A DNA stretch of 64,000 nt, taken from the NCBI GenBank assembly GCA_030653545.1, contig JAURZE010000024.1, positions 248,001 through 312,000 on the forward strand, in the 5' to 3' direction. The notes under the pieces were generated by a model, which was not told the origin of the DNA, did not search any database, and saw only the letters and a program-made list of their open reading frames with translations. Source of the DNA: Nitrospira sp. (lineage in GTDB: Bacteria > Nitrospirota > Nitrospiria > Nitrospirales > Nitrospiraceae). A program made the position numbers and the translations under genes. Shown here one piece after another: positions 711 to 63,684 of the stretch. Position 1 is the first letter of the stretch. Every line of letters begins with the position of its first letter.

Positions 711-2660
711 TCAGCTCCCCTGCTCGTCCCCGTGCGGGAGATGATCGATCGACGCGCCGACCGCGAACCGATCTTGTTTCGTGACCGGAGCCTTCCCGAC
801 GAGTTCCTTCACGCTTTGATAAATGCCTTCCGCCGTGAGCCCATACCGCTCCCGCAAGAAATCCTGGGGCCCTTGCTCAATATACCAATCCGGAAGCCCG
901 AGCACCTTAGTCGTCACGTCGGTGATGCGGGCATCGGACAACGCTTCGAGCACTGCGGAGCCGAAGCCGCCCATCTTGCAGCCCTCTTCTACCGTCACCA
1001 CATATCGCACCTGTTTGGCCACATCGACGATCAGCTCCTGATCGAGCGGTTTCACGAATCGGGCGTTCACCACGGCGGTTGAAATACCCTCCCTGGTGAG
1101 CCGTTCGGCCGCTTGCATTGCCTGCCAGACCGAGACTCCGATGGCCATGATTGCGACATCGGATCCGTCCTTCATCAACTCGCCCTTCCCGATCGGGAGT
1201 GCGGCAGGAGCGGCGTCCATCGGAACCCCGAGGCTGACCCCGCGCGGATAACGGAGCGAGACCGGCCCGTCATGCTGGATGCAGGTCTTCATCATGTGCT
1301 GCAGCTCGTTCTCATCCTTCGGCGCCATCACCACCATATTCGGGGCGTGCCGCAGATAGGCGTAGTCGAACGCCCCATGGTGCGTGGTGCCGTCTTCCGC
1401 AACGAGACCACCGCGATCGATACAGAAAACGACGGGGAGATTCTGCGTGGCCACATCGTGCACTACCTGATCGTAGGCGCGCTGCAAGAAGGTCGAGTAC
1501 ATGGCCACCACAGGTTTCAGACCCTGCGTCGCCAGTCCGGCCGCGAATGTCACGGCATGCTGTTCGGCGATTCCCACATCGTACAACCGATCGGGGAATT
1601 CTTTTTCAAACCCTGTGAGACCGGTTCCTTCGCACATCGCCGCCGTAATAGCGACGATCCGCTTGTCCTCGCGAGCCAGCTTGACCAGCGAGTCCATGGC
1701 AATTTGGGTATATGAGGGGCGCGCGGCCTTTTTCGCCGGCACACCGGTCTCGCGCACGAAGGGCGGACAGGCATGGAACCAGACCGGGTTATTGATGGCC
1801 GGGTCATACCCGAGACCCTTCTTCGTAATCACGTGCAGTAAGACCGGCCCCTTCATCTTCAGCACATTCTCCAAGGTCGGGAGCAAATGCTCAAAGTTGT
1901 GGCCATCGATCGGCCCGCAATACTGGAAACCCAGTTCTTCGAACAGCAATCCAGGAAGAATCGCTCCCTTCGCCAGCTCTTCGGCCCGGCGAGCCAGCTT
2001 CTGCATGTCCTCCCCGATGTGAGGAATCTTTCGCAGGAGTTGGCCGGTTTCCTCACGCATCTTCCCGTAAAATTCACCGGTAATAGTTCGGCTCAGGTAG
2101 GCGGAAATCGCGCCGACGTTCTTCGAAATCGACATTTGATTGTCGTTCAAGATCACCAGGAAATCTTTGCCCATCCCGCCGGCATGATGCAGACCCTCCA
2201 GAGTCATCCCGGCGGTCATCGCGCCGTCCCCGACGACACAGACGACTTTATTTTTCTGTCTCAATTGCTCGCGCGCTTCAACGAGTCCGAATGCCGCCGA
2301 CACGCCCGTACCGGCATGCCCGGCATTGAAGGAATCGTATTCGCTTTCTTCTCTTTTACAAAATCCGCTGAGCCCGCCGTACTGACGTAGCGTATGGAAC
2401 TGCTCACGACGGCCCGTCAGCAACTTGTGCGTATAAGCCTGATTGCTGGTATCCCAGACGATCTTGTCGGTCGGTGTTTTCAACAGGTAGTGCAACGCCA
2501 CCGTGAGTTCCACCACGCCGAGATTCGACGCCAAGTGTCCGCCAACGCTGGATACGGTACCAATGATCTGCTCACGGATTTCTTCGCACAGCGCGGGCAA
2601 TTGGCTCGGCGATACCCGCTTGAGATCTGCTGGACTTTGAATGGTCTTGAGGATCGACAT
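711..2660 (-). CDS. dxs: 1-deoxy-D-xylulose-5-phosphate synthase
   Basis: DXS condenses pyruvate and glyceraldehyde 3-phosphate to DXP, the entry step of the MEP pathway. The 649-residue product has the usual family length. It shows the thiamine diphosphate motif (GDGAMTAGM ... NDNQMSIS, about residues 143-180), the GGHLASNLG segment with its conserved His at residue 42, the pyrimidine-domain stretch IAEQHAVTFAAGLA and RYPRG. One departure is visible: the usual DVGHQAYPHK motif reads DTSNQAYTHK, so the histidine is Asn73. The neighbour downstream is ispG, and upstream lie the hopanoid/Mla genes, so isoprenoid precursor supply is adjacent to isoprenoid use. The call is secure; the effect of the substitution is not known. 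Confidence 0.97.
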   Translation of the reverse strand: MSILKTIQSPADLKRVSPSQLPALCEEIREQIIGTVSSVGGHLASNLGVVELTVALHYLLKTPTDKIVWDTSNQAYTHKLLTGRREQFHTLRQYGGLSGFCKREESEYDSFNAGHAGTGVSAAFGLVEAREQLRQKNKVVCVVGDGAMTAGMTLEGLHHAGGMGKDFLVILNDNQMSISKNVGAISAYLSRTITGEFYGKMREETGQLLRKIPHIGEDMQKLARRAEELAKGAILPGLLFEELGFQYCGPIDGHNFEHLLPTLENVLKMKGPVLLHVITKKGLGYDPAINNPVWFHACPPFVRETGVPAKKAARPSYTQIAMDSLVKLAREDKRIVAITAAMCEGTGLTGFEKEFPDRLYDVGIAEQHAVTFAAGLATQGLKPVVAMYSTFLQRAYDQVVHDVATQNLPVVFCIDRGGLVAEDGTTHHGAFDYAYLRHAPNMVVMAPKDENELQHMMKTCIQHDGPVSLRYPRGVSLGVPMDAAPAALPIGKGELMKDGSDVAIMAIGVSVWQAMQAAERLTREGISTAVVNARFVKPLDQELIVDVAKQVRYVVTVEEGCKMGGFGSAVLEALSDARITDVTTKVLGLPDWYIEQGPQDFLRERYGLTAEGIYQSVKELVGKAPVTKQDRFAVGASIDHLPHGDEQGS

Positions 2661-2772
2661 AGGATGATCTCCCTTGAATCGTATCTCAGCTATTCTGCTT
2701 GGTTTTTATGCACGAGGAGGCAGAAAAACGGATGCAACCGCATCCCCGTCAATTAAGATGGAATTGCTCGTC

Positions 2773-2801
2773 AGTTTCACACAAAGATCCTTTGCTGTCA
2801 A
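2773..2801 (-). promoter_or_regulatory. possible weak sigma70-type promoter upstream of dxs
   Basis: On the minus strand a consensus TTGACA (2796-2801) is followed after 17 nt by GAAACT (2773-2778), a poor -10 match. It lies in the 176-nt gap between the DUF3187 gene and dxs and could start a dxs-ispG transcript separately from the hopanoid operon. The -35 is good and the -10 weak, so this is tentative. Confidence 0.3.
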
Positions 2802-2836
2802 GCAGTTAGAGACGCCGCCTATCGAGCCATCCCTCT

Positions 2837-3850
2837 TCATGACCCAAATTGAAATGTCACCACTGTGGAGAGGGTAAAATCGGCGGCACTCCCGACAATG
2901 AAATCGAGATTTTCCACCGCGTACACCTGCCAGAGCAGCTGCGGGCGCAAGCGATAGCTAAAACCGAGCACGCCTTCCGTGACTCCCTTGTCGAACACAT
3001 GCGTGCCGGTTCCGTACAGCGGCGACGAGAAATAGTCGAAATGTCCCACGATGGAGAAATTCTCCGACCAGAGATACTCCACTGCCACCAGGGCAGAGAC
3101 GACCGGCTGCAACCCGAATCCTGCAATGTGGCCAGTCGGAATCACCCCGTTGATGTTCGCATACACCATCCAGTCCTTGGCCACATGTTTCTCCAGGGCC
3201 AAGCCAAACCCGTAATCCGGACTGCCGCTTCCCAAGAGGTGCGATTCGTCTCCCGTTGGAAGTTTCAGTGCAGCGCGAAGCGACAAGGCCGGCAATGAAC
3301 TCGTCTCCGTCAGCACCTGATACTTGCCCATCACCGAGGCATCGCCCAATCCAACGACACCCTCCCGCGCATTAATCACGGTGCGTCCGCCCGATGTCAC
3401 CTGGTAGGCATACCCTGTTCCCTTGAGCGCCCTTCGATCAGGCGCCAGGCCGGTCGTCGCCCGCTCAACCGCCGTGATCATGCCTTCCATGATACCCCGA
3501 TAGCGGTTCACTATCGGTACTTCCACGGCCATCTCCAGCCGCTCGGTCACTCCATAGCGGAGAAACAATCCTGACCGGATACTCTCAAACTTCATCGTGA
3601 CTGACGTCTGCGGGGTAGCATCGGAAAAGATGTTGGCGGTATTGGCGAGTTCGATACGGAGATCGAGGGATCCGGGCTTCAAGACCGTCGCGCGATCGCC
3701 GGGCATTCCAAGCACTAATTGGTGCACCGGCTGAAAATTTCTCACGGGGAACGGTCCAAACCCTTCAGCCCATAGGAGCGGAGGGATCGCCCCACCCGTC
3801 AACACGATACTCACGAACAGGATGGCGAATAGAATCTGACCCCACGACAT
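2837..3850 (-). CDS. DUF3187-family outer-membrane beta-barrel protein
   Basis: This 337-residue protein has an N-terminal hydrophobic signal (about residues 6-28) and then a series of short amphipathic strands with alternating aromatic residues. It ends in TVVTFQFGS, as outer-membrane barrels often do. The FGPFPVRNFQPVHQL segment right after the signal and the later ALKLPTGDESHLLGSG and DYGFGLAL stretches match what I recall of DUF3187, a family of unknown function. It is the last gene of the tight run that begins at shc, 15 nt after the BamA-type gene. I infer an outer-membrane role connected with the lipid-transport genes upstream. The family assignment is from memory and the function is unknown. 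Confidence 0.75.
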   Translation of the reverse strand: MSWGQILFAILFVSIVLTGGAIPPLLWAEGFGPFPVRNFQPVHQLVLGMPGDRATVLKPGSLDLRIELANTANIFSDATPQTSVTMKFESIRSGLFLRYGVTERLEMAVEVPIVNRYRGIMEGMITAVERATTGLAPDRRALKGTGYAYQVTSGGRTVINAREGVVGLGDASVMGKYQVLTETSSLPALSLRAALKLPTGDESHLLGSGSPDYGFGLALEKHVAKDWMVYANINGVIPTGHIAGFGLQPVVSALVAVEYLWSENFSIVGHFDYFSSPLYGTGTHVFDKGVTEGVLGFSYRLRPQLLWQVYAVENLDFIVGSAADFTLSTVVTFQFGS

Positions 3851-56255: not shown

Positions 56256-56655
56256 TCGTCCCCTTCCTTCAAGTCCCGCTTTCTTCGGAACATTCTTCCT
56301 CATCTACCCGCAACCCAGTCCATCGGAATAACCCCTAAGTTTCGTTTTCTTAATCACACCACCCTTCACTGCCCTCAAGTTGCCGTCAGCAAGCACCGAT
56401 GAACGGACACGTACGCCCGATTGCCGGGTGTCAGCAGAGGTCGGCGTGCCCCTTCGCGTCAACGCCCACGCCACATACCACCCGCCCCTACCCAGCGCGC
56501 TTCAGCTTCATTGCACCTCTTCCGATAAGAACTACGGAGAACCAGGGCAAACCAGCTTGCCGACCGAGCCGACCGGCAAGCAGGGCTCCGGTATGTCCAA
56601 GAAGTCTGTTCGCACGCTGAATGATCAGCGCCAACGGCAATGAAGGAGTCGTGTC
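56256..56655. other. 400-nt leader/intergenic region before the TonB receptor gene
   Basis: No gene is supported. It includes a hairpin (GCTTGCCG at 56553-56560 with CGGCAAGC at 56573-56580) shortly after a GGGCAAACC sequence, and ends with an AAGGAG ribosome site 8 nt before the receptor ATG. No promoter with good boxes and no cobalamin-type riboswitch was recognised. Confidence 0.5.
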
Positions 56656-58674
56656 ATGTTCAGAGCCAAGACAACCCGCGTCGGCTGCGTCGTCCTCTGC
56701 CTCATGGCGACCTCTGCCATGGCGCAAACGGATCTGCCGCTCGATCCGATCACCACCGAGCAGGCGACATCCCCAGAGGCGGGACTCTTTCTCGAAATCC
56801 CCTCGGTCTATGGAGCGGCGAAGTACGACCAGAAGGTGAGCGAGGCGCCAGCCGCCGTCATCATCATTACGGCCGAACAAATCAGGAAATACGGCTATCG
56901 GAACTTCGCCCAAATTCTCGACAGTGTCCCGGGCTTCTATACCAACAATGACCGGAATTATGGGTACACGGGAGTAAGAGGGTTCAACCGGCCGGGCGAT
57001 TACACCACCCGCATCCTGCTATTAGTCGATAACCACCGGCTCAACGACGCCGTGTACGACCAGGGCGGGGCCGGCGCAGAAATGCCGATTGACGTCGATT
57101 TAATTGACCGTGTGGAGATCATCAAAGGTCCGGCCTCTTCGCTCTACGGCACCAACGCATTCCTTGGCGTGGTCAATGTCATCACGAAACGGGGACGGGA
57201 TCTCAAGGGCACGGAAGTGTCGGGAGAAGCGTCCAGCTTTAACACCTATAGAAGCCGGCTCAGTTACGGCAACAAATTCTCCAACGGGGTGGAGATGCTC
57301 CTATCAGGCTCGTTGTCGGACAGCGAAGGCCATCGAGAACTTCATTATCCGGCATTCTCCAGCGTGAATAACGGCATCGCCAAGGACGCAGATCGCGACA
57401 GCTTGAGCTACTACATGGGAAAGTTCTCCTTGGGGGATGTCACTCTTACCGGCGGACATCAGTGGCGGAAGAAGACCGTGCCGACCGCGGCTTTTGAAAC
57501 GGTGTTCAATGACAACCGCCACAATACTGTCGACGAACGATCGTATCTCGATCTCGTCTATCAGCATGATTTCGCAAACCAGCTCAATCTGAAGGCCCGG
57601 CTCTATTACGATCGCTACTATTATCGCGGCATATTCCCGCTCGACTACGCCGGGACCGGCACGCCTCCCTTTACTCTCAATAGAGATTTTGCGCAGGCCG
57701 ACTGGTGGGGAGCTGAACTCACGGCCACGAAAAGGCTGTTCGACCGCCACAAAGTCACGATCGGGACGGAGTATCGAGATCAGTTCAGGCTAAACCAAGG
57801 CAATGCAGACATCGAGCCTCCGGCCACTTACCTCGACGACAAGCGCCGGTCAAATTTCATCGCCGTCTACGCGCAGGACGAATGGGCAATCACTGATCAC
57901 ATCGTGTTGAACGCAGGAGTCCGGCACGACCAGTACAGTACGTTCGGCGGTACGACCAATCCGCGGGCCGGAATCATTTCCACCTGGGATAAGACCACGG
58001 TAAAACTGCTGTACGGTCAGGCCTTCCGGGCCCCCAATCCCTTCGAGCAATATTATGTGGCATCAACTACGAATAAGGCCAATCCCAACGTCAAACCAGA
58101 AAAGATCAAGACGCTGGAATTCGTCGTCGAGCAATACTTGGGCCATCACCTCCGCATACTTGGCAGCCTCTACCAATACAACATTTCCGGCTTAATCACC
58201 CAGACGACCGACCCCGCGGATTCGCTGCTCTTTTACAGCAATGTGGAAAACATCACTGCTCAGGGCGCGGAACTTACCATGGAAGGCAAATGGGCTTCCG
58301 GCCTCGAAGGACGGCTGAGCTATGCGCTGCAACGCACAGAGAACGATCAAACGAATCAGGATCTGACCAATTCCCCTCAGCATCTGGTAAAGGCCAATGT
58401 AATTGTCCCGGTGATCGGGGACAAGCTTTTCGCAGGCTTCGAGGGACGCTATACCAGTTCACGATTGACGCTTGCGGGAACCAACGCCAGTCCCTTCTAG
58501 ATCCTGAACGTGTCGTTATTCAGCCAGCAGTTCGTGAAGGGGTGGGAACTCTCCGCCCACCTCAACAATCTGATGAATCAAAAATACGGATACCCGGGAG
58601 CCGGCGAACACCAACAGAATGTCATCGACCAGGATGGGAGGACGTTCTGGGTGAAACTTAAGTACCGTTTCTAG
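56656..58674 (+). pseudogene. TonB-dependent receptor interrupted by an in-frame TAG
   Basis: TonB-dependent receptors are 22-stranded outer-membrane barrels importing siderophores, cobalamin or sugars. The frame from 56656 gives 614 residues with a signal peptide (cleavage near SAMAQT) and a plug domain (SEAPAAVIIITAEQIRKYG, VRGFNRPGDYTTRILLLVD, IDRVEIIKGPASSLYGTNAF). Most of the barrel follows, with QAFRAPNPFEQYY and LEFVVEQYLGHHLRI. It stops at TAG (58498-58500). In the same frame translation would continue for 57 codons through LFSQQFVKGWELSAHLNNLM and end FWVKLKYRF (stop 58674), the expected last strands with terminal Phe. A nonsense mutation, sequencing error or read-through are all possible. 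Substrate unknown. Confidence 0.85.
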
Positions 58675-58695
58675 CGGAGCGGGCGCCGGACGAAT

Positions 58696-59643
58696 ATGGA
58701 ATCCTCCTTGAAAACGACATCACTCAAACGGCTGGCACTGGCGCTGCTGCTCGCCTGGCTCCTGAGCACGACGGTGCAGGCAGGCGATGTTCGCGTCGTC
58801 ATCATCGCCAGCCAGGACGCGGCCCCCTATCAAGACCTGGCCAAGGGGTTTCGCCAGCACTTGGAATCGCACGCCGGGTCGGTTTCGTTCGAGACCTATA
58901 GCCTTCAGGGGAGCGCTGCCAAAGTGAGTGACCTGTTTCCTGCCATCAAGACCAAGTCTCCACAGCTGCTCCTGACGATCGGGACCCTGGCCACACAGGC
59001 TGCGCTTAAGGAACTCCCCGACATCCCTCTCGTGGCCGGATTAGTCGTGGACCCGGACAACCTGCTCAAAGGCGGCCGGGCCACGGGAATCGGCGTGGAG
59101 TTTCCCCTCGAGATCCAGTTGCAATGGCTCCAGCGAATCGTGCCCGGCGCCGGCACGATCGGCGCGTTGTACAATCCGAAGGAGAATCGCGCCAGGATCG
59201 AGGCCGCCACCAAAATTGCCCGCAACATGGGATTGAAATTGGTCTCGCGCGAAGTCGAGACACCGCGCGCCCTCCCCGATGCACTCGACAGTCTCGGCAA
59301 AGATGCCGACATCCTCTGGGGGCTCAGCGACCAGGTCGTGCTCTCCCCGCAAACGGCCGAACCGATTCTCCTGTTTTCCATGCAACACCGCCTTCCGCTC
59401 AGCGGACTGACCACCTCGTGGACCAAAGCCGGCGCCCTCTACTCACTGGACCGGGACTACGCCGATCTGGGGGCCCAATGCGGCGAACTGGCGCTCAAAA
59501 TTCTTGGAGGAGCCAAGGCCGGCACCCTGCCGCCGGTCCCGCCGAGAAAAGTGGTCTATTCCCTAAACCTGAAAACGGCCGATCACATGAAGATTGATGT
59601 CCCGCAAGCGATTATCGAAGGGGCTCAACACGTTTTCCGATAA
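58696..59643 (+). CDS. ABC-type substrate-binding protein (ABC_sub_bind family), orphan
   Basis: This 315-residue periplasmic protein has a signal peptide ([18 protein letters not shown], cleavage near 30) and the two-lobed fold of the TrpX-type ABC_sub_bind family. Marks are [76 protein letters not shown] and [11 protein letters not shown]. No permease or ATPase gene is nearby. It lies 21 nt after the receptor gene and ends 25 nt before the start of the hybrid kinase. It is therefore more likely a ligand-presenting partner of the kinase than part of a transporter. Ligand unknown. Confidence 0.85.
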
Positions 59644-59668
59644 CACCCGAACCCAGGACACCGGCACG

Positions 59669-62545
59669 ATGCGCTCGACACTCGCGACAAAATTCAACCT
59701 GCTGACCGGCTCTCTGATTCTCTGCGCCGCGGTGGTCATCGGCGGGCTCCTGGTCAGGCAACAGATCGCGGCGACCTCCGAGGGTCTCATCCATCGCGGC
59801 CAGATCCTCACGGCCTTGATCGCGCAGAACAGTGAATACGGCGTGTTCACGGAGAATCGCGACAACCTCCTGAAGCTTGTCGAGAGCCTGAGCGTCGACC
59901 CCGACTTTGCCTATGTGGAAATCCGGGGAAAGGATTCGAAGGTGTTGGCCGGGAAATCAATAGACGGGCAACCAATCCCGTTGCCTGGGACTCCGCCTCT
60001 TGAGGCTAGCCCCGAGGCTGGCACGGCCAACGCGCGCAGCATGATAACGAATCAGTCCTTCATCGAGTTCGTAGTCCCCGTCACGACGAAACCGATGGCG
60101 GATTCCGGCGGCCTCTTCGTCGACCCTTCAGCGGCCTCCACTCAACCGAGTGCGATCGGATCAGTTCGTCTGGGTTTAGGGAAGCAACGTCTTGAGCAAT
60201 CCATCGTACAAACCATTGCGTCCACAGGCATCACGGCATCGCTCGTCATCCTGCTTGGTATCGGGCTGACTCTCGTCGTGACCCGTCGGATCGCGGCGCC
60301 GATTCGCACGCTTCGCGACGCCACGCAAAAAGTCGCCCAAGGCGATTTGGCTCAACCGTTAACGATCGTCACGCGCGATGAAGTCGGAGACCTTGCGCAC
60401 TCGTTCAATCGCATGGTCGGAAAACTGCGAGAGGCCAAGGAGCAGGAAGTCCGCCATCAAGAGACGCTCGAAGCTACCGTCGTGGAGCGCACCTCCGAAC
60501 TGACCCAGACGGTCGCCGCACTCCAAATCGCCAAAGAAGCCGCCGAGGCGGCCAGCATCGCCAAGTCTCAGTTTCTCGCCAACATGAGCCACGAGATCCG
60601 CACCCCGATGAACGGCGTCCTCGGCATGGCGGAATTGCTGATGAACTCCCCGCTCACGGAGAAGCAACGGCATCTTGCCACGAGCGTGCACCGCTCGGGA
60701 ACCGCCCTGCTCGGCATCATCAATGACATTTTGGACTTCTCGAAGATTGAGGCCGGCAAGCTCGAGCTTGAACAGATGGAATTCGGGCTCCGGGACACGA
60801 TAGAGGAGGCAGTGGACCTCTTCGCCGAGCCGGCGGGCAAGAAAGGGGTGGAGTTGACCTGCTACATCCCCGCCGATATTCCTGACAATGTCCTTGGCGA
60901 CCCAGTACGCCTACGGCAGATTCTGCTCAATCTGGTCGGGAACGCCGTGAAGTTCACCCCCAGCGGCGACGTGGCGGTCCGGGTTACCTGCGTAAACCAA
61001 GGGATCGACGCACTCACCCTGAAGGTCGAGATCGCCGACACCGGGTTGGGCATCCCCGCTCAGGTCCAATCGCGGCTCTTCACCGCATTCTCTCAAGCCG
61101 ACGGATCCACTACGCGACGCTTTGGGGGCACCGGCCTCGGTCTCGCCATCGTCAAACAATTGGTAGAGCTCATGGGTGGAGAGGTCGGCGTAATGAGTGC
61201 GCCTGGCAAGGGCTCGACCTTCTGGTTCACCATCCAACTGGGACAGGGCACACCGCACGCCCCACAGGAGGCACCGGATACCCGATTCCTGCATCACACC
61301 AGAATCCTGGTCGTCGATGACAATGACATCAATCGTGACATTTTGGAGGCCCATCTCACGGCCTTGGGAGCCGACACGATCTGCGCCGAATCCGGGGCTG
61401 CCGCCCTGGCCGTCCTGCATGAGCGCGCGGGGACGCCGCCGATCGACCTGGCCATTCTCGACATTCACATGCCCGACATGGATGGCATCATGCTCGCCCG
61501 CGCCATCAAGGAGGATCCGCGCACCCGCCACATGGAGCTCCTGGCCCTCAGTTCCGTCGACAGCCAGGAACACGGGGGAGACGGGAAGGCGCTTGGATTT
61601 GCCGCCTGGCTCAGGAAACCCGTTCGCCAATCTCTCCTGAGAGACTGCCTCCGTCGGCTCCGACAGGGGGCTATCGATCGACCACCCGAACCGGTTCCGG
61701 CTCCGACACCAGCCACGCTACGGTCCTCTCTGGGGCGCGTGCTCCTCGTCGAAGACAATCCCGTCAACCGCGAGGTCTCCACCGGCATGCTCGACATCCT
61801 CGGCTATGACGTCACCGTCGCCGAAGACGGCCAGCAGGCGCTGACAGTATCCGCCGCCAATTCCTTCGACCTCATCCTGATGGATTGCCAAATGCCCGTC
61901 ATGGATGGATTCACGGCCACGGCGAGGATTCGGGATCGAGAACAACAGACCCAGGTCGCACGAATCCCGATCATCGCCCTCACCGCCAACGCGATGGACG
62001 GAGACCGCGAACGCTGTCTGGCTGCAGGAATGGACGACTACCTGAGCAAACCCTTCTCCCAACAAGCACTGGGAGACCTTCTGGCCCACTGGCGTCTCCC
62101 CCGAATCCCGGCTCAGGCATCTTTGCCCCCCACGACAACAGAAACGACTGGGACCAGCGAGCAACCGCCGTCGCCAGTGTCACACGTCGATCGCACCGCC
62201 TGGGCGACCATCACCGCGCTCCAACGACCGGGGAAGCCTAATCTGCTGCACAAAACGATCGGCCTCTATCTCACGAGTTCTCAGACGCAGGTCGATGGGC
62301 TTCGCCAGGCGCTTCAGGAAGGGAATCACCAGGCCATGATCGTCCCGGCCCATACGCTGAAATCGTCGAGCGCCATGCTCGGCGCCAGCCGACTGGCCGA
62401 ACTTGCCGGCCAGATCGAGACCGCCTGTCGAAACGGACAAGGGACGCGGTCGGCGGAACTGATCCCGGACCTGGAACGCGAGTACCAGCAGGCTTGCAGC
62501 ATTTTCCGTCAAGAACTTTCTCAAACAGCCGAGGAGGCAGCATGA
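59669..62545 (+). CDS. hybrid sensor histidine kinase with two receiver domains and Hpt
   Basis: This 958-residue membrane protein starts at an ATG (59669) just past the binding-protein gene; an earlier in-frame start at 59594 would overlap that gene. It has a membrane helix (about 12-34), a periplasmic region, a second helix (about 175-195) and a HAMP linker. HisKA follows ([19 protein letters not shown], His near 310), then the ATPase domain ([34 protein letters not shown]). Two receivers come next ([12 protein letters not shown] and [12 protein letters not shown] with their Asp residues). A C-terminal Hpt domain has the His in [21 protein letters not shown]. All phospho-relay residues are present. 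It resembles BarA/ArcB-type relays. The input is unknown, probably via the binding protein. Confidence 0.93.
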
Positions 62546-63684
62546 AACTCTCGACCTTCACGTATCCCGCAACTCATCCAACTCCAATCGCGAGCCATCC
62601 TCTCAAGGATCCTGCGCGGACACTCGTTATTCTCTTCGGCCCTTCCCACTTGATGGACGCTCCGGGCCCCATCCAAACAGTCCTGACCGCCTACGCCGGC
62701 GCCGCGGCCATCGGCTGCTCCAGCTCAGGGGAAATTTTCGGCACGCAAGTTCAGGACGATACCCTGGTCGTCGGACTCGTAGAGTTCGACTCCACCACCG
62801 TCCGTACTGCGTCGGCTCAGGTTACCGATCCAGGCCATTCCTTCGAAGCGGCACAGGCGCTTGCACATCAATTGATGGATCCCGCGCTCCGCGGCGTCCT
62901 GGTGCTCTCCGACGGACTGGGCGTCAATGGCAGTGAACTGATCCGTGGACTGAACGCGGTACTCCCGGCACAGGTGGTGGTCTCGGGAGGCTTGGCGGGC
63001 GACGGCGACCGGTTTAAGCGGACCTGGGTCATTAAAGACGGACTTCCGGTCGCTGGTCATGTCACAGCAGTCGGGTTCTATGGCTCCGCGATCCGGCTCA
63101 CCCACGGATCCAAAGGCGGATGGGATCTCTTCGGACCGGAACGGCTTATCACCCGTTCCAAAGGAAACGTGCTCTATGAGTTGAACCAGAAGCCGGCGCT
63201 CCAACTCTACAAAGACTACCTGGGTGAACTCGCGAATGGACTGCCGGGCACCGCGCTCCTTTTTCCTCTCGCGATCCGGCAGACGCAACAGGACACCAAA
63301 CGTCTGGTCCGCACGATCCTCGCCGTCGACGAGGCGGCTCAGTCCCTCACGTTTGCTGGCGATATGCCGGAGGGAGCCTATGCCCAGTTTATGCGCGCCA
63401 ATTTCGACCGGTTGATTCAGGGCGCCTCCGACGCGGCCACTGCGGCGGCCGCACCGAACCCGGAGCCTTCGCCGACGCTCTCGATTGCCATCAGCTGCGT
63501 CGGACGGCGGCTCGTGCTGGGTGAACGAACCGAAGAGGAAGTCGAAGCGGCCTTCGATGTGTTGCCCAAAGGCGCGGCACAGATCGGATTCTATTCCTAT
63601 GGCGAGATCTCGCCCTACAGCACGGGACACTGCGATCTCCACAACCAGACCATGACCCTGACCACGATTTCAGAGGCCGCCTGA
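62542..63684 (+). CDS. FIST-domain sensory protein
   Basis: FIST (F-box and intracellular signal transduction) domains are proposed small-ligand sensors, often linked to two-component and cyclic-dinucleotide proteins. The start at 62542 overlaps the kinase stop (ATGA junction) and has a GAGGAGG ribosome site. The 380-residue product has the N-terminal FIST_N part ([42 protein letters not shown]) and the FIST_C part ([72 protein letters not shown]). It has no membrane segment, so it acts in the cytoplasm. Amino acids are the ligands suggested for the family; this is not tested here. Confidence 0.9.

What the first reader, a model, noticed from the sequence alone, without database searches (positions are those of the whole stretch)
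58498..58500. In-frame TAG in a TonB-dependent receptor, with the missing barrel end intact downstream
Translation continues in the same frame for 57 sense codons after the TAG and ends with FWVKLKYRF, the expected last strand with terminal Phe. Without it the receptor loses its C-terminal insertion signal. This is either a recent nonsense mutation, a base error, phase-type variation or read-through.
Basis: seen in the sequence. Interest (0 to 1): 0.55.

Follow-up and report, generated by a model that had tools for sequence, protein, structure and literature searches.

The report
Nonsense mutation in a Nitrospira receptor
A nitrifying bacterium's outer-membrane uptake receptor gene carries a single premature stop codon that removes the end of its barrel; it most likely is an ordinary recent loss-of-function mutation in an accessory gene that related bacteria also tend to lose.

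Summary
ORF 56656-58500 (614 aa) is a TonB-dependent receptor ending at TAG 58498-58500. The same frame then runs 57 codons to FWVKLKYRF and a natural TAG at 58672-58674. All 21 distinct orthologous loci read have Tyr (16) or Phe (5) at that codon; none ends there. The 57 codons are as conserved as in intact orthologues, so the stop is young. Read-through has no support: no CTA-anticodon tRNA among 46 tRNA hits, no PylS, intact RF1, and TAG is an everyday stop, including this gene's own. No repeat or paralogue points to phase variation. Base error is unlikely but not excluded without reads: this was the only broken gene of 125 compared, with no frameshifts. Orthologues are broken in 5 of 24 judgeable genomes (window included) against 0 of 23 aconitases from the same genomes. 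Best reading: a genuine recent nonsense mutation inactivating an accessory receptor that heads a conserved receptor/periplasmic-binding-protein/hybrid-kinase cassette; both downstream genes are intact. Ordinary; the recurrent loss is mildly interesting.

The parts
56656..58500 (+). Truncated TonB-dependent receptor ORF (614 aa): signal peptide by eye, plug, most of the barrel, premature TAG
58498..58500 (+). In-frame TAG; 21 of 21 distinct orthologous loci have Tyr (16) or Phe (5) here
58501..58671 (+). 57 codons still homologous to the receptor C-terminus (last three predicted strands; low-confidence model), ending in Phe
58672..58674 (+). Natural stop codon of the receptor frame, also TAG
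58696..59643 (+). ABC_sub_bind (PF04392) periplasmic binding protein, intact, starts 21 nt after the natural stop
59669..62545 (+). Hybrid histidine kinase (HAMP, HisKA, HATPase, two receivers, Hpt), intact; third gene of the conserved cassette

Best explanation
A single-base nonsense mutation arose recently in this Nitrospira lineage in an accessory TonB-dependent receptor gene. Translation stops after residue 614, the last barrel strands and the terminal-Phe assembly signal are missing, and the product is presumably not assembled and is degraded. Shown: the stop, the sense codon in all orthologues read, conservation beyond it, intact downstream genes, and repeated breakage of orthologues. 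Inferred: that the base is real, that the protein is non-functional, and that loss is tolerated or favoured (for example because such receptors also admit phages or bacteriocins, or because the ligand is dispensable).
For: Sense codon at this site in 21 of 21 distinct loci read. Median dN ratio downstream/upstream 0.63 for window pairs and 0.62 for other pairs. Private residues 4/57 downstream and 35/572 upstream, p=0.77, so no decay since the stop. One broken gene of 125 and no frameshift in 146 kb compared, so the assembly looks clean (a second hit is nuoC/nuoD fused in the relative). Breaks in 5 of 24 judgeable genomes for the receptor, 0 of 23 for aconitase in the same genomes (p=0.05), 0 of 20 for the neighbouring binding protein. 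The G006 orthologue has its own independent in-frame TGA.
Against: No reads and no second genome of the same species were available. The two frameshifted orthologues L047 and L021 lie at runs of G and L048 has clustered indels, so some of those breaks may be sequence errors. Faster receptor change on this lineage (66:39 against 527:603 in 23 control genes, p=0.0015) could mean relaxed constraint older than the stop, or just gene-to-gene scatter: 2 of 23 controls have a higher ratio.
Confidence: 0.8

Rival explanations
1. The TAG is a single-base consensus or sequencing error and the gene is intact.
For: One substitution separates it from the commonest orthologous codon, and the downstream part shows no decay. 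The assembly is in 39 contigs and reads are not available.
Against: No frameshift and no other real internal stop in 125 genes / 146 kb compared. Among listed family-wide aconitase matches only G022 shows internal stops, so errors of this kind are rare, while this receptor family is often broken.
Confidence: 0.12
2. The TAG is read through (suppressor tRNA, recoding or leaky termination), giving some full-length receptor.
For: The downstream frame is conserved.
Against: No CTA-anticodon tRNA among 46 tRNA hits (44 by ARAGORN, two Ser tRNAs by eye); no PylS; RF1 present; TAG ends 384 of 1106 ORFs of 150 aa or more and also ends this gene; no unusual downstream fold (z -1.16); no orthologue read shares the stop.
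Confidence: 0.03
3. Reversible on/off (phase-type) variation of the receptor.
For: Orthologues are repeatedly broken, and two relatives (L047, L021) have frameshifts in runs of G.
Against: No tandem repeat in 56300-58800, only weak chance-like repeats around the stop, no close paralogue in the genome to recombine with (best other match 35% identity). A point substitution is not a known high-frequency switch (recalled).
Confidence: 0.03

Closest known systems
TonB-dependent receptors of the CirA / heme / BtuB branch (TIGR01785, TIGR01779, PF00593+PF07715)
   Same: Plug and barrel architecture; best solved relative by sequence is the colicin I receptor (2hdf, E 2e-25)
   Different: The listed NCBIfam cut-offs are all missed (156 against 316.85 bits for the best, TIGR01785), so the substrate is unassigned; truncated here
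Pseudomonas aeruginosa PA1613-PA1612-PA1611 cassette next to fabA
   Same: Same set and order of genes (receptor, periplasmic ABC component, hybrid histidine kinase) in the gene table of PMC12054119 (passages seen); PA1612-PA1611 operon in PMC3462791 (passages seen)
   Different: Compared by annotation only, no sequence comparison; mapping the receptor to PA1613 is my inference; in the window the receptor is broken and the genomic context differs
Recent bacterial pseudogenes by single nonsense mutation
   Same: One stop, otherwise intact frame, orthologues mostly intact, no decay yet
   Different: Nothing beyond recurrence across relatives

Membership tests
TonB-dependent receptor | Plug domain plus TonB-dependent barrel domain | tested here: met
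   PF07715 75.2 bits and PF00593 137.7 bits, both above cut-off
TonB-dependent receptor | Complete barrel with terminal aromatic assembly signal | tested here: not met
   Translated product ends at residue 614; the C-terminal 57 codons ending in Phe lie beyond the TAG. So: gene of this family, product not a complete member
TonB-dependent receptor | TonB-dependent transport | not testable with these tools
   Needs experiment
Nonsense pseudogene | Premature stop absent from orthologues | tested here: met
   0 of 21 distinct loci share it
Nonsense pseudogene | Stop present in the organism's DNA, not an error | tested here: inconclusive
   Assembly looks clean, but no reads
Stop-codon recoding / read-through | Dedicated tRNA, recoding signal or conserved stop in relatives | tested here: not met
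Phase-variable gene | Hypermutable repeat, invertible element or recombining paralogue | tested here: not met

The most novel reading that the evidence does not exclude
The receptor of this receptor/binding-protein/kinase cassette is under recurrent selection for loss in Nitrospiraceae, for example as a phage or bacteriocin entry point, while the sensory half of the cassette is kept; the window's TAG would be the newest of several independent knock-outs.
Probability: 0.2. Interest if true: 0.45.

Novelty: new member of a known kind. Interest (0 to 1): 0.2.

Why it matters
As a single event it matters little: annotation should mark the gene as a probable pseudogene and not as evidence of recoding. 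If the recurrent breakage holds up with read-level checks, it would point to a receptor whose loss is repeatedly tolerated or selected in nitrite-oxidising bacteria, and so to a candidate phage or bacteriocin receptor or a niche-specific nutrient.

Tried and rejected
Read-through and recoding: rejected. Phase variation: no support. Tandem paralogue as donor: a second copy exists in G037/L046 but not in this genome. Structure prediction: mean pLDDT 44.7, too poor for a fold search; only its three strands at or after the stop (614-623, 628-637, 663-671) are mentioned, with that warning. Branch-specific dN/dS: dS is saturated (over 1.0 in every pair where it could be computed), so I used dN ratios, private residues and a relative-rate test. 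The first break scan with unfiltered ORFs was dominated by antisense and upstream artefacts and was replaced. In one search the 'sum others' line wrongly includes the truncated copy of the receptor (60:37); I subtracted it by hand to get 23 genes, 527:603. In one search the rows L047 and L048 were misaligned because of frameshifts; their codon was read. The promoter/terminator scan gave nothing above shuffles. A length-weighted binomial on breaks in receptor against neighbours gave p=0.018 for five breaks and 0.09 if L047 and L048 are left out (with rounded lengths). Literature: searches gave no paper on this gene; only the passages or listings named were seen.

Full report
What is there. The frame 56656-58674 encodes a TonB-dependent receptor with one internal stop, TAG at 58498-58500, followed by exactly 57 sense codons ending FWVKLKYRF and a TAG at 58672-58674. 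Plug and barrel domains are both above Pfam cut-off. The read-through product matches TIGR01785 to its last position, the truncated one stops at 604 of 677; both are far below that family's cut-off, so the substrate is not assigned. The closest solved relative by sequence is the colicin I receptor. The genome is held as G000 (3.94 Mb, 39 contigs, 99.9% complete); its nearest named orthologues are all Nitrospira MAGs.

Orthologues at the codon. brought 24 loci with the orthologue (L009-L021, L038-L048); three pairs are the same contig (judged by equal contig length), leaving 21 distinct loci. All 21 have a sense codon at this position: Tyr in 16, Phe in 5. None ends there. The nearest are about 75-82% identical in protein, so no genome of the same species was available.

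Age of the stop. dN of the 57 codons relative to the upstream part has median 0.63 in pairs with the window and 0.62 in other pairs. Residues private to the window are 4 of 57 downstream and 35 of 572 upstream (p=0.77). There is no sign of decay after the stop, so it is young compared with the split from the nearest relatives, or is not real. Against a simple picture, the whole receptor has changed faster on this lineage: in a three-way comparison with G079 and G080, 66 window-only against 39 G079-only residues, while 23 control genes give 527 against 603 (with the truncated receptor row removed by hand; Fisher p=0.0015). The controls scatter widely (ratios 0.23 to 4.14) and 2 of 23 exceed the receptor, so this is weak evidence for earlier relaxation.

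Error or real. Relatives' genes were compared with 1.51 Mb of this genome: 125 places, 146 kb, two with an internal stop and none with a frameshift. One of the two is nuoC and nuoD, separate here and fused in the relative (gene names recalled from the sequence). So the receptor is the only broken gene found. Across the family (175 genomes searched) 27 hold an orthologue at E<=1e-100. Combining searches are intact, 5 are broken (window TAG; G006 TGA; G063 frameshift; G104 = L047 frameshift; G120 = L048 clustered indels), and 3 cannot be judged (G025 with a 100-N gap; G122 partial; G152 split over two contigs). The equation of G with L handles is by matching contig and position. Aconitase, a gene of similar length from the same window, was found in 162 of 175 genomes; among the listed rows only G022 has internal stops (the list is cut). 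For the 27 receptor-bearing genomes, 23 have a listed aconitase without stops, G025 matches but its row is not shown, and G009, G054 and G104 have no match. 5 of 24 against 0 of 23 gives p=0.05. The neighbouring binding protein is unbroken in 20 of 20 distinct loci where it is covered. Aconitase is probably essential, so it controls for sequence error and not for the tolerance of loss. The G006 stop lies at a different codon and differs by one base from its relative L017, so it is independent. The frameshifts in L047 and L021 lie in runs of G and L048 has several indels in a short stretch; these may be sequence errors.

Read-through. RF1 is present and intact, PylS is absent, and none of 46 tRNA hits has a CTA anticodon (two unread ones are Ser tRNAs by eye). 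TAG ends 384 of 1106 non-overlapping ORFs of at least 150 aa. The 100 nt after the stop do not fold unusually. No orthologue read shares the stop. Phase variation: no tandem repeat, only weak repeats, and no close paralogue.

Consequence. The low-confidence model (mean pLDDT 44.7) places three strands at or after the stop, and loss of these together with the final-strand signal should prevent a closed barrel (inference). BAM can also use internal signals (PMC10945584, abstract and passages), so 'no insertion signal at all' would be too strong. The downstream binding protein and hybrid kinase are intact. The three genes stand together in 11 of 11 named loci, and the same set and order is listed next to fabA in P. 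aeruginosa (PMC12054119, passages; PMC3462791, passages). PA1611 is one of the kinases of the Gac network (PMC4866733, listing only). Whether the cassettes are related by descent was not tested. TonB-dependent receptors are known phage receptors in other bacteria (PMC12054119, passages), which is the basis for the selection idea in the novel case; nothing here tests it.

Verdict. A genuine recent nonsense mutation in an accessory receptor is the best reading (0.8); base error is the main rival (0.12). The finding is ordinary, with a mildly interesting pattern of repeated loss.

Noticed in passing
window 56656-62545; L038-L048: Conserved three-gene cassette: TonB-dependent receptor, ABC_sub_bind periplasmic protein, hybrid histidine kinase. 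The receptor is about 64-82% identical, but the binding protein and kinase only about 41-53% except in L038 (77% and 65%).
   Followed up: partly
L018 (G006), 1501-3507: Independent in-frame TGA in another orthologue of the same receptor.
   Followed up: partly
L046 / L010 (G037): Tandem duplication of the receptor upstream of the binding protein.
   Followed up: no
window, 24 sites: CTAG is strongly under-represented (24 seen, 88.9 expected); two of the 24 are the premature and the natural stop of this gene.
   Followed up: no
G000 C28:199021-200775: nuoC and nuoD are separate in this genome and fused into one ORF in relative G080.
   Followed up: no
window 62542-63684: FIST-domain protein with a sub-threshold NosP match (56 against 450 bits), directly after the kinase.
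   Followed up: no
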